Shown piece after piece: positions 3,923 through 20,916 of a stretch of DNA of 50,215 nucleotides. Source of the DNA: Pseudomonadota bacterium (GTDB taxonomy: Bacteria; Pseudomonadota; Gammaproteobacteria; Burkholderiales; JAKAFK01); assembly GCA_021817985.1 (NCBI GenBank), contig JAKAFK010000022.1, forward strand, positions 1-50,215, read 5' to 3'. Within the stretch, counting starts at the first letter, position 1, and each line of letters begins with the position of its first letter. A program made the translations under genes and the position numbers. The notes beneath the pieces were generated by a model. That model had not been told where the DNA came from. It did no database searches and was given only the letters and a program-made list of their open reading frames with translations.

Positions 3923-6463
3923 ATGCTTGCTGCCTACCACGCCCACGTTGCGGACCGTGCCGCCCATGGCTTGCCGCCGCTGCCCCTCGATGCCGAGCAG
4001 ACGGCGCAACTCGTTGCGCTTCTTCAGGAGGCGTCGGCCGCGACACCCGAGTTCTTGCTGGATTTGCTGGAAAATCGCGTGCCTCCCGGGGTGGATCAGG
4101 CGGCGCAGGTCAAGGCGTCGTTTCTGTCCGATTTGGCATGCGGGCGGGCGCGTTCTCCCTGGCTCTCCCCCGAAAGGGCGGTTGCGCTGCTGGGGACCAT
4201 GCTGGGCGGGTACAACGTGAGCGCGCTGGTCGGCCTGCTCGATACCGATCTCGCCGCGCATGCGGCCAGTGCCTTGTGCAAGACGACTCTCGTCTTTGAC
4301 GCCTTCCACGCGGTGGCGGAGAAGATGCATGCGGGGAATGCACAGGCGAGGCGCGTGATCGAGTCGTGGGCCGAGGCGCAATGGTTCACGTCGCGTCCCG
4401 CGCTGCCTGCGGCGTTGAAAGCCGTGGTTTTCAAGGTGCCGGGCGAAACCAATACCGACGACCTGTCCCCGGCCCAGGAGGCCTGGTCGCGGCCGGACAT
4501 TCCGCTTCACGGGCTCGCCATGCTCGCGAACAAGATGCCGGACGCGCTGGCGCGCATCGCGGCGCTCAAGGAGCAGGGCCTGCCGCTCGCGTACGTGGGC
4601 GATGTGGTCGGGACGGGCTCGTCGCGCAAATCGGCGATCAATTCCGTGCAATGGTATCTGGGGCAGGACATCCCCTTTGTGCCGAACAAGCGCACCGGAG
4701 GCATCGTGCTCGGCACCAAGATCGCGCCGATCTTCTTCAACACCGCCGAGGACTCGGGCGCGCTGCCCATTCAATGCGACGTCTCCGAGCTCAATACCGG
4801 CGACGTGATTTCGATTCATCCTTACGAAGGGGAGATCCGCACGGATGCCGGCCGCGTCGTCAGCCGATTCCAACTGGAACCGGTGACGCTTGCCGACGAG
4901 GTGCGCGCGGGCGGCAGGATCCCCTTGATCATCGGCAGGGGCTTGACGCAGAGGGCCCGCCAGCTGCTGGGGCTCGGGCCAACGGATGTGTTCGCGGCCC
5001 CCGCCGCGCCGCAGCGGAAAGTCTCGGGCTATACGCTGGCGCAGAAGATCGTCGGGCGGGCCTGCGGGGTGCCGGGCGTCCTCCCGGGAACCTACTGCGA
5101 GCCGAGGATGACCACCGTGGGCTCGCAAGACACGACCGGCGCGATGACGCGCGACGAACTCAAGGAACTGGCGTGCTTGGGATTTTCCGCCGACCTGGTG
5201 ATGCAAAGCTTCTGTCATACCGCGGCCTACCCGAAAGCCGTGGACATCAAGCTGCAGCACGAACTGCCGACATTCATGACGGCGCGCGGCGGGGTGGTCC
5301 TGCGGCCGGGCGACGGCATCATCCATTCCTGGCTTAACCGGATGCTGCTGCCCGATACGGTGGGCACCGGCGGAGATTCGCATACCCGGTTCCCGATCGG
5401 CATTTCCTTTCCGGCGGGTTCGGGCCTAGTGGCGTTCGCGGCCGCCATGGGGGTGATGCCGCTCGACATGCCGGAGTCTGTGCTGGTGCGGTTCAAGGGC
5501 GAGCTCCAACCCGGCATCACCTTGCGCGACCTGGTCAACGCCATTCCCTATTGCGCCATCCAGGCCGGCCTCCTGAGCACCGGCAAGCAGGGCAAGAAGA
5601 ACGTCTTCTCGGGACGCATCATGGAGATCGAGGGGTTGCCCCAGCTCAAGGTGGAACAGGCCTTCGAGTTTGCCGATGCGTCCGCCGAACGCTCGGCCAA
5701 CGGCTGCACCGTTCGCCTGGGACTCGCCCCGGTCGTCGAGTATCTCAAGTCCAACGTCGCGCTCCTCGAGCGCATGATCGATCAGGGCTATGGCGATGCG
5801 CGCACCCTGCGCCGCCGGGTCGAGGCCATGCGCAGCTGGCTGGATGCCCCGCATCTGGAAGAACCGGATGCCGGCGCGGAGTACGCGCACGTGCTCGAGA
5901 TCGATCTGAACACGATTCGCGAACCCTTGGTGGCGTGCCCGAACGACCCGGACGACGTGCGCCCATTGTCGGCGGTTGCCGGCGATCCCGTCCAGGAGGT
6001 GTTCATCGGCAGCTGCATGACCAACATCGGCCACTACCGGGCGGCCGAGCAGATCCTGAAGGACGCGGGGCATCTGCCCACGCGCCTATGGATCGCCCCG
6101 CCCACCCGCATGGACAAGGCGCAGCTGACCGAGGAAGGCGCCTATTCGACGTTTGGGCGCGTGGGCGCCCGCACCGAGGTTCCCGGGTGTTCCCTGTGCA
6201 TGGGCAATCAGGCGCGCGTGGCCGATGGCGCGACCGTTTTCTCGACGAGCACGCGCAACTTCGACAACCGCATGGGCAAACAGGCCCGCGTCTACCTCGG
6301 GTCGGCCGAACTGGCGGCGGTGTGTGCGGAGCTCGGGCGCATGCCGACCGTGGAGGAGTATTCGAGCCGCATGGGTGACAGGATCGAGCCGCAGAAAGAT
6401 CGCATCTACCGCTATCTCGGTTTCGACCGGATGCCGGAGTATGCGCGCCCCGCGGGCGCGTGA
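3923..6463 (+). CDS. acnB: Bifunctional aconitate hydratase 2 / 2-methylisocitrate dehydratase
   Basis: The 846-residue protein aligns with AcnB from its first residues ([20 protein letters not shown], like MLEEYRKHVAERAAEGIAP in E. coli). The in-frame ATG 12 bases upstream (3911) is therefore less likely to be the start. AcnB isomerises citrate and isocitrate in the TCA cycle and dehydrates 2-methyl-cis-aconitate in the methylcitrate route. The [4Fe-4S] ligands are visible: a Cys in [11 protein letters not shown] (about residue 698) and the pair in GCSLCMGN (about 756 and 759). The domain order is the B type, with HEAT-like and swivel domains first. An extended -10 promoter lies just upstream, and the gene is divergent from the chemoreceptor. 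Confidence 0.97.
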
Positions 6464-18666: not shown

Positions 18667-19938
18667 ATGGCGCACGTTGTGATTGTCGGTGCGGGGATCG
18701 GTGGCCTGTCGATGGCCTATGAGATGCGCGAGCGCGCCCGGCCGGGAGAGCGCATCACGGTGATTTGTGATGGCGAGACCTTTCAGTTCGTGCCCTCCAA
18801 TCCGTGGTTGGCGGTGAACTGGCGCACGCGTGGCGACATCGAGTTTCCGTTGGCGCCCTATCTGGCCCGGCGCCAGATCGGCTTCATCGCGTGCGGCGCC
18901 AAGCGAGTGCATCCAGGCGACGATGCGGTGGAACTCCTGGATGGACGGCGGATCGGTTATGACATCCTGGTGCTGGCGACCGGCGCACGGTCGGCCTTCG
19001 GCGAAATCGAAGGCCTCGGACCCGGCCAGTACACGGAGTCGGTGTGCCACATCGACCATGCGGCGCAGGCGGGGCGCCGGTGGGAAGCGTTCGTGAAGGA
19101 TCCCGGCCCGGTCGTCGTGGGGGCCGTACAGGGGGCTTCCTGCTTCGGTCCGGCCTATGAATTCGCCTTCATCATGGATACCGACTTGCGTCGGCGCAAG
19201 CTGCGCCACCAGGTTCCCATGACGTTCATCACGCCGGAGCCTTATGTCGGACACCTTGGGCTCGGTGGGGTGGGCGACTCCAAGGGACTGCTCGAGGCGG
19301 CCATGCAGGATCGTCATGTCCGGTGGATCACGAACGCCCGGGTGGAAAGGGTCGAGGCGGGCAAGATCCATGTCGTGCAACTGGACGGGCAGGGCCATGA
19401 GCGAGAGCGGCATGAGGTGCCCTTCCGCTATGGCATGATGCTGCCGGCGTTCAGGGGGGTTGACGCCGTCGCGGGCGTGGAAGGCTTGAGCAATGCGGAG
19501 GGCTTCGTGTTGATCGATCGGTACCAGCGCAATCCTACGTTTCGGAATGTCTATGCAGTCGGGGTCTGCGCGGCCATTCCGCCGGTAGAGGCGACAGCCG
19601 TGCCGACCGGCGCACCCAAGACGGGCTATATGATCGAGACGATGGTGAGTGCCGCAGCCGCCAACATCCGAGCCGTGCTCGATGGCGGGGATCCCTATGT
19701 CAAGCCCACCTGGAACGCCATCTGTCTCGCGGACTTCGGGGATTCAGGCGCGGCCTTCGTCGCGCTGCCCCAGATGCCGCCCCGCAACGTGAGCGCGTTC
19801 AAGCAGGGCAAATGGGTGCACCTGGCGAAGGTCGCCTTCGAGAAATACTTTATTCGCAAGATGAAGAAGGGGACGACCGAGCCGCTGTACGAGAAATACG
19901 TGTTGAGCGCACTGGGCATCACCAAACTGACGGAATAA
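18667..19938 (+). CDS. sqr: Sulfide:quinone oxidoreductase (type I, Acidithiobacillus-like)
   Basis: This 423-residue membrane-associated flavoprotein oxidises H2S to polysulfide and passes electrons to the quinone pool. The sequence tracks the A. ferrooxidans enzyme from MAHVVIVGAGIGG to the C-terminal YFIRKMKKG amphipathic region. All three functional cysteines are present: Cys127, Cys159 (in GASCFGPAYE) and Cys353 (in NAICLADFGD), matching Cys128, Cys160 and Cys356. The dinucleotide-binding glycines are at residues 8-13. ATG 18667 is chosen because GGAGGGG lies 6 bases upstream; the upstream in-frame ATG would lie at the predicted transcript start. It is probably controlled by the divergent FisR-like activator. 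An intrinsic terminator follows. Confidence 0.96.
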   Translation: MAHVVIVGAGIGGLSMAYEMRERARPGERITVICDGETFQFVPSNPWLAVNWRTRGDIEFPLAPYLARRQIGFIACGAKRVHPGDDAVELLDGRRIGYDILVLATGARSAFGEIEGLGPGQYTESVCHIDHAAQAGRRWEAFVKDPGPVVVGAVQGASCFGPAYEFAFIMDTDLRRRKLRHQVPMTFITPEPYVGHLGLGGVGDSKGLLEAAMQDRHVRWITNARVERVEAGKIHVVQLDGQGHERERHEVPFRYGMMLPAFRGVDAVAGVEGLSNAEGFVLIDRYQRNPTFRNVYAVGVCAAIPPVEATAVPTGAPKTGYMIETMVSAAAANIRAVLDGGDPYVKPTWNAICLADFGDSGAAFVALPQMPPRNVSAFKQGKWVHLAKVAFEKYFIRKMKKGTTEPLYEKYVLSALGITKLTE

Positions 19939-19949
19939 ACGGGTCCTCC

Positions 19950-19982
19950 TCGAAGGCGCGCCGCGCGAGTGCGCGCCTTCGA
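19950..19982 (+). other. 12-bp perfect stem-loop behind sqr
   Basis: TCGAAGGCGCGC and GCGCGCCTTCGA pair across a 9-nt loop, 12 bp beyond the sqr stop. It lacks a U tract. With the true terminator that follows, it forms a double hairpin at the mRNA 3' end. Confidence 0.6.
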
Positions 19983-20023
19983 AGCCTGCGGCACGGCGCG
20001 TGCGTCGTGTCGCGATCCCTCTT

Positions 20024-20051
20024 GAGGCAGGTTAACCCTGCCTCTTTTTTT
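20024..20051 (+). terminator. Intrinsic terminator of sqr
   Basis: GAGGCAGG and CCTGCCTC form an 8-bp stem with a 5-nt loop, followed directly by seven Ts. It is a textbook rho-independent terminator. The group II intron-like sequence begins 2 bp after the last T. Confidence 0.9.
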
Positions 20052-20052
20052 G

Positions 20053-20375
20053 GTGCGCCAGGCATGGCGCGTAGCGCCGTGACTGGCGCTGTCGGAACCG
20101 CTGTGGTGGCGGGGAAGACGACTTGGAGATGGAAGTCCTCCACACACCCGGCACGGGGAAGTGTCAGCCGAACGGCAAGGGTGTCCGCCGCAAGGCGGAA
20201 TCTGAAGGCAAAGTGCTGACCTGACGAACAGGAAGCGGATAGAGGCGGCATGGCGGGGCGAGCAGGCCCATATCTGTAAAGCCCGATACTTGCACGGAGC
20301 GCCATGACGTAGATCCGACAGGCATAAGCATGAAGGTCGCGCGCATTGCCCTGGGAGACCTGTCGTCCTGCCTTG
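20053..20375 (+). mobile_element. Truncated group II intron remnant (5' ribozyme part, no reverse transcriptase)
   Basis: The segment opens with GTGCGCC, the expected GUGYG 5' boundary, and folds at once into small hairpins (GCGCCA-GGCA-TGGCGC at 20055-20070). It then carries stretches I recognise from bacterial group II intron domain I, such as GTGTCAGCCGAACGGCAAGG, CCGCCGCAAGGCGG-AATCTGAAGG, CTGACGAACAGGAAG and, near the end, AAGGTCGCGCGCATTGCCC with GGGAGACCTG. Similarity then fades near 20375. No domain V-like hairpin and no reverse transcriptase frame follow before the DUF2784 gene, so this is a 5' fragment that cannot splice by itself. It sits directly behind an intrinsic terminator, the target preferred by group IIC introns, but the class is not decided here. 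Identification is from memory of intron sequences. Confidence 0.6.
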
Positions 20376-20489
20376 TGCTATTGGCACTGGAAGGCGTCGG
20401 GATGGGGCGGCAGAAGGCAGCAAAGATCCTCGTCGCCGCGCGAAGGTGGGCGGATCCGGCGTTTTCCCTCGGGCGCGGCTACCCACGGG
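20376..20489. other. Short gap after the intron remnant
   Basis: This contains no recognisable gene or intron 3' end. With the terminator and intron fragment, it completes the roughly 550-bp non-coding interval between sqr and the DUF2784 gene. Confidence 0.4.
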
Positions 20490-20876
20490 TCATCGGCCGC
20501 CCGGACGGCGGTGACGTGGCGGGATGAGCCAGAAGGCGAGGGCAACGGCGAGCGCAAAGAGGACATAGGCCGCCGTGAAGACCCAGGTTGGGAAGGTGTA
20601 GTAGAGCAACCGGGAGACCCAGTACTGGATGAATCCCTCGCGGGTGGGCCGGGCACCGCGCAGCCACTGTTCCAGGGTCGTCAGCGGACAGCTGAGGCCA
20701 GCCAGCGATTCCAGCGCGACATAGGCGATGGCGGCCAGATGGATCATGCGGAACCAGAGATTGCGAACGAACCCCCAGCCCATGACTGCGCCCAGCATGA
20801 TGGTCGCGAAGCCTCCCACCACGAACAGCACGAACAGGAGATGGAGGATCAGGACCGCATCGGCCAGGGTCTGCAT
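20490..20876 (-). CDS. DUF2784 membrane protein
   Basis: The 128-residue integral membrane protein has about four hydrophobic segments. The motifs ADAVLILHLLFVLFVVGG at the start, the central SLAGLSCPLTTLEQWLR and the later FIQYWVSRLLYYTFP are characteristic of DUF2784. Function of the family is unknown. The ATG at 20876 is preceded by an in-frame GTG (20879), which could also start it. It is the last gene of a probable minus-strand unit behind the Rieske oxygenase and the SpoIIAA-like gene. Confidence 0.88.
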   Translation of the reverse strand: MQTLADAVLILHLLFVLFVVGGFATIMLGAVMGWGFVRNLWFRMIHLAAIAYVALESLAGLSCPLTTLEQWLRGARPTREGFIQYWVSRLLYYTFPTWVFTAAYVLFALAVALAFWLIPPRHRRPGGR

Positions 20877-20916
20877 CACGAGGTGTTGCCGGGGGAGAGG
20901 AGGGCGCCGCCGGCGG

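What the first reader, a model, noticed from the sequence alone, without database searches (positions are those of the whole stretch)
20053..20375. Truncated group II intron 5' end lodged directly behind the sqr terminator
GTGCG starts 2 bp after the T run of an intrinsic terminator, followed by segments resembling domain I of bacterial group II introns, but no reverse transcriptase, domain V or 3' end. Group IIC introns are known to insert behind terminators. The fragment marks a past insertion next to a key energy gene.
Basis: partly seen in the sequence, partly recalled or inferred. Interest (0 to 1): 0.6.

Follow-up and report, generated by a model that had tools for sequence, protein, structure and literature searches.

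The report
Decayed group IIC intron stub
Directly behind the transcription terminator of a sulfide-oxidation gene lies the dead front end of a bacterial retroelement (a group IIC intron) that has lost its enzyme and its rear half; this is an ordinary molecular fossil, whose decay can be followed by comparison with a sister species.

Summary
A covariance-model scan of the whole window finds one hit, Rfam group-II-D1D4-3, at 20184-20339 (+), 116.6 bits against a gathering score of 32, E 2.5e-23. The intron starts with GTGCG at 20053, one base after the T-run of an 8-bp terminator hairpin (20024-20044). Clear intron homology runs to 20425, about 50 bp beyond the stated end: 91% identity to another copy in the same genome, about 80% to full-length introns on plasmids. 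No reverse transcriptase, domain V or 3' end follows.

The full-length relatives encode an RT/maturase without an endonuclease domain, and the closest solved relative of the same-genome RT is GsI-IIC RT. Nearly all compared 5' ends sit behind terminator-like hairpins, so this is bacterial class C (IIC). A same-genus genome has the same sqr-terminator-stub-DUF2784 arrangement with only about 60 nt of intron left. The insertion therefore predates the split, and the stub has kept eroding. Among 80 genome loci carrying sqr relatives, only that genome shares it, so it is not a conserved host element. [quoted passage not shown] Ordinary; a new instance of a known kind.

The parts
18667..19938 (+). 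sqr, sulfide:quinone oxidoreductase gene (host gene upstream of the insertion)
   Evidence: phmmer against PDB: sulfide-quinone reductases, 506 bits; Pyr_redox_2
20024..20052 (+). intrinsic terminator of sqr: 8-bp hairpin 20024-20044, T-run 20045-20051, one G; the 5' exon / target site of the intron
   Evidence: terminator scan, fold z -3.3, also present in the sister genome
20053..20425 (+). 3'-truncated group IIC intron: intact 5' end (GTGCG) and most of the 5' RNA part; ends before the RT reading frame
   Evidence: RF02001 E 2.5e-23; 91% identity to the copy on contig C50 and 87% to the copy on C33 of the same genome; about 80% to a full-length plasmid intron
20184..20339 (+). stretch matched end to end by Rfam group-II-D1D4-3 (domain I); carries a 10-nt internal deletion relative to other copies
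   Evidence: and the alignment
20426..20489 (.). region beyond the truncation point up to the stop codon of the convergent DUF2784 gene; no significant intron homology; from 20445 it aligns with the sister species as shared flank
20490..20879 (-). convergent DUF2784 gene, the downstream neighbour, same order in the sister genome
   Evidence: Pfam PF10861 E 1.3e-27; synteny

Best explanation
This is the dead 5' remnant of a bacterial class C (IIC) group II intron. Shown: position behind an intrinsic terminator, 5' end at GTGCG, domain I similarity, loss of everything after about intron nucleotide 373, and the same insertion in a sister species with only about 60 nt left. Inferred: an intron RNP reverse-spliced into DNA just after the sqr terminator hairpin in a common ancestor of the two species. 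Because the intron lay beyond the terminator it cost sqr little. The RT gene, domains V-VI and the 3' end were then lost by deletion, and in the sister lineage a second deletion of about 330 bp removed most of what remained. The remnant can neither splice nor move, and most likely does nothing.
For: RF02001 116.6 bits, E 2.5e-23. Two further copies in the same genome at 91% and 87% identity. A full-length plasmid relative (L052) has the same 5' end, an ltrA gene and domain V, about 1.92 kb in all. Its protein has RVT_1 and GIIM but no HNH domain, and the closest solved relative of the C50 RT is GsI-IIC RT. Nearly all of 17 compared 5' ends sit about 7-11 nt behind a hairpin. The sister genome keeps sqr, terminator, about 60 nt of intron and then the shared flank starting at window ~20445. 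Only that genome shares the stub among 80 sqr loci. Literature: class C introns insert behind terminators (PMC4424553, PMC3522654); [quoted passage not shown]
Against: No empty site and no full-length intron at this exact locus is available, so target-site loss during the deletion cannot be measured. The cause of the truncation at about 20425 (simple deletion or IS-mediated) is not visible; no IS remnant was seen at the junction. EBS1/IBS1 pairing was not tested. The genomes are metagenome-type or draft assemblies, though the sister genome has independently the same order.
Confidence: 0.96

Rival explanations
1. The stub has been kept as a functional host RNA or as part of the sqr 3' processing or termination signal, for example as a structured element stabilising the transcript end.
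For: The terminator and the first ~54 nt of the intron are 96% identical between the two species (52/54), like the adjacent intergenic sequence (114/120).
Against: Identity is no higher than in the flanking non-coding DNA. The sister lost about 330 nt and mutated the GTGCG motif to GTGCC. The window copy has a 10-nt deletion inside domain I. It lies beyond the terminator, so it is transcribed only by read-through.
Confidence: 0.02
2. It is one part of a split (trans-splicing) group II intron whose 3' part lies elsewhere in the genome.
For: The genome holds one domain V match, on contig C33:592-663.
Against: That 3' piece carries the RT C-terminus beginning where the C50 copy's RT breaks off, so it is most simply the other half of the C50 copy. 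The sister genome's stub at the same site is only about 60 nt and no domain V pattern was found there. The stub lies between genes behind a terminator, not inside a gene that needs splicing.
Confidence: 0.01
3. The truncation is an assembly artefact and the locus really carries a longer intron.
For: Multi-copy introns break short-read assemblies: C50 ends inside the disrupted intron region and a G035 contig ends inside an intron 5' end.
Against: The contig passes through the stub into a neighbour region that the independently assembled sister genome has in the same order, and no other contig carries the missing 3' half of this copy.
Confidence: 0.02

Closest known systems
Bacterial class C (group IIC) introns that insert behind intrinsic terminators (Robart, Seo and Zimmerly 2007, cited in PMC4424553)
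   Same: 5' end GTGCG, domain I family RF02001, insertion about 8 nt behind a terminator hairpin
   Different: This copy lacks the RT/maturase, domains V-VI and the 3' end; it is a remnant
Full-length ltrA-bearing intron of Pseudomonas aeruginosa plasmid p30Pae2-KPC (NZ_ON248939.1, L052:4010-5932)
   Same: About 80% identity over the whole stub; same 5' terminus and target type
   Different: Complete (about 1.92 kb with ltrA, domains V and VI); the window copy stops at about nucleotide 373
Group II intron fragments with loss of the 3' terminus (RmInt1 decay in Sinorhizobium, PMC4496777; fragments in Enterobacteriales, PMC3522654)
   Same: Same decay pattern: 5' end kept, 3' end lost
   Different: Class C rather than RmInt1; at a terminator rather than inside an IS element

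Membership tests
Group II intron, bacterial class C (as a complete, working member) | 5' end of the GUGYG type | tested here: met
   GTGCG at 20053, aligned with the 5' ends of full-length introns
Group II intron, bacterial class C (as a complete, working member) | Domain I sequence and structure | tested here: met
   RF02001, full model length, 116.6 bits
Group II intron, bacterial class C (as a complete, working member) | Domains V and VI and a 3' splice site | tested here: not met
   No RF00029 match in the window, none at E<=10 in 19900-20700
Group II intron, bacterial class C (as a complete, working member) | Intron-encoded RT/maturase | tested here: not met
   Homology stops at 20425, before the RT frame of relatives; the only RVT_1 match in the genome is on C50
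Group II intron, bacterial class C (as a complete, working member) | Splicing and retrohoming activity | not testable with these tools
   Needs experiments; impossible in cis without domain V
Remnant of a bacterial class C (IIC) intron | Insertion directly behind an intrinsic terminator | tested here: met
   Hairpin 20024-20044 and T-run; the same geometry at nearly all of 17 compared 5' ends
Remnant of a bacterial class C (IIC) intron | Full-length relatives carry an RT/maturase without an endonuclease domain, nearest to IIC RTs | tested here: met
   RVT_1 and GIIM only; GsI-IIC RT is the best PDB match of the C50 RT, 397.6 bits
Remnant of a bacterial class C (IIC) intron | EBS1/EBS3 pairing with the target site | not tested
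   EBS positions were not assigned in this truncated copy
   Of 80 genome loci with sqr relatives only the same-genus genome has it, shortened

The most novel reading that the evidence does not exclude
In this genus, class C introns decay one-sidedly. Four separate 5'-only stubs behind terminators, and no orphan 3' piece, were seen in two genomes. This could point to a process that specifically removes the 3' side, for example IS capture or broken intermediates, rather than random deletion.
Probability: 0.1. Interest if true: 0.35.

Novelty: new member of a known kind. Interest (0 to 1): 0.15.

Why it matters
It is a clean worked example of how a terminator-targeting retroelement dies: the same insertion caught at two stages of erosion in two species. 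It supports known ideas about harmless target choice and decay by loss of the 3' end. It changes nothing about sqr or energy metabolism.

Tried and rejected
Homology beyond 20425 was tried with local and anchored alignments to full introns and to intron 3' ends; none was significant. The best local score, p = 0.028 among nine targets, is not convincing. An empty site was sought in 60 relatives and in 80 genome loci carrying sqr relatives: in those read, other families have neither this terminator nor DUF2784 next to sqr, so no empty site was found to compare. A 250-genome survey with a full-length intron scored only two candidates per genome, so it could not be used to count 5' against 3' remnants. 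A plasmid stretch fetched as a BLAST hit (L055) happened to carry enterotoxin genes in its flank and was not used further.

Full report
Observation. The sequence at 20024-20058 reads GAGGCAGG TTAAC CCTGCCTC TTTTTTT G GTGCGC. The hairpin folds at -15.2 kcal/mol, z -3.3, and is listed as terminator-like. GTGCG begins at 20053. A scan of the whole window against Rfam gives one match: group-II-D1D4-3 at 20184-20339, end to end, 116.6 bits, E 2.5e-23. With permissive filters on 19900-20700 nothing like domain V appears.

Extent. BLASTN inside the same genome finds two more copies. One is on contig C50 (91% identity, window 20048-20425) and one on C33 (87%, window 20037-20386). In plasmids, 338 records match; a full-length relative is in Pseudomonas aeruginosa p30Pae2-KPC. 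There the intron runs from GTGCG at L052:4010 to ...CCTACCCGAT at L052:5932, with ltrA at 4440-5861 and domain V/VI at 5861-5932. Aligned with these, the window copy is clear up to 20425 and then stops, before the RT frame. Anchored extension beyond 20425 is no better than shuffles (p = 0.58).

Class. The full-length relative's protein has RVT_1 and the maturase domain GIIM and no HNH domain. The closest solved structure of the C50 RT is GsI-IIC RT, 397.6 bits. Nearly all of 17 compared 5' ends, in this genome, in relatives and on plasmids, sit about 7-11 nt behind a hairpin, mostly with a T-run. This is the known target choice of bacterial class C introns (PMC4424553, PMC3522654).

Same site in a sister species. 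In the only same-genus genome held (G001, contig C61; public record JAJYKK010000101.1), sqr is 91% identical at protein level and the terminator is the same. It is followed by about 60 nt of intron 5' end, joined to the sequence that begins at window ~20445, then DUF2784 and the SpoIIAA-like gene in the same order. That allele follows from a window-like allele by one deletion of about 330 bp. Over the shared 54 nt the two species are 96% identical, as in the adjacent intergenic DNA (114/120), and the GTGCG motif itself is mutated to GTGCC in the sister. There is no sign of constraint. Among 80 genome loci carrying sqr relatives no other has the stub.

State of the family in the two genomes. 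C50 carries a 5' end and an RT that breaks off near residue 364 of the reference. The start of C33 carries the RT C-terminus from about residue 365 with domains V-VI. The two halves are complementary, so they are probably one intron split by an inserted element or by the assembly. C33:4042 is another 5' stub, cut off by an IS3-type transposase tail. G001 has further 5' stubs at C24 (a DEDD_Tnp_IS110 transposase frame follows) and at C3. A domain V pattern search finds one 3' end in G000 and none in G001. No intact copy was found. Fragmentation with loss of the 3' terminus is a described course for group II introns (PMC4496777).

Mechanism. Insertion behind the terminator by reverse splicing and reverse transcription is inferred from the class. 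Post-insertion deletion is supported by the nested allele in the sister. The stub has no catalytic domain and no protein, so it cannot splice or move in cis. A retained function is possible but nothing points to it.

Verdict. It is a remnant of a known kind of element at its known kind of target, with a modest extra: two stages of decay of one insertion.

Noticed in passing
G000 C50:1-1640 (L010) and C33:1-663 (L011): Two contig ends carry complementary halves of a class C intron (RT broken near residue 364; the rest with domains V-VI on the other contig), as if an insertion element split the intron and the assembly broke on it.
   Followed up: partly
G000 C33:4042-4388 (L011): Second 5'-only intron stub behind a terminator, ending directly at the tail of an IS3-type transposase frame.
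   Followed up: partly
G001 C24:19182-19301 (L043) and C3:2118 (L044): Further 5'-only stubs of about 120 and 45 nt behind terminators in the sister genome; downstream of the first lies an IS110-family transposase frame.
   Followed up: partly
L045:2656-2820 (G000 C90) and L046:1965-2110 (G001 C7): A related terminator region (79-80% identical to the sqr 3' region) recurs in both genomes, followed by what look like short 5' ends of other intron types (GTGTGCCC..., TGCGCCC...). In G001 a broken RT remnant lies about 1.5 kb downstream (C7:16075-16239).
   Followed up: partly
G000 C17:20628-20734 (L004): 5' end of a different, more divergent group II intron (30.7 bits to RF02001), again directly behind a hairpin with a T-run.
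   Followed up: no
L054:2509-3190 (Aeromonas caviae IncP plasmid pKAM345_1): A short relative of about 680 nt with the 5' end and domain V but no RT gene, between the parB-family and kfrA-like genes; possibly an ORF-less class C intron.
   Followed up: no
L037 around 1380-1450 (G020): An intron 3' end (CCTATCCGAT) is followed directly by another intron 5' end (GTGCGCTCGGCATG), suggesting tandem insertion.
   Followed up: no
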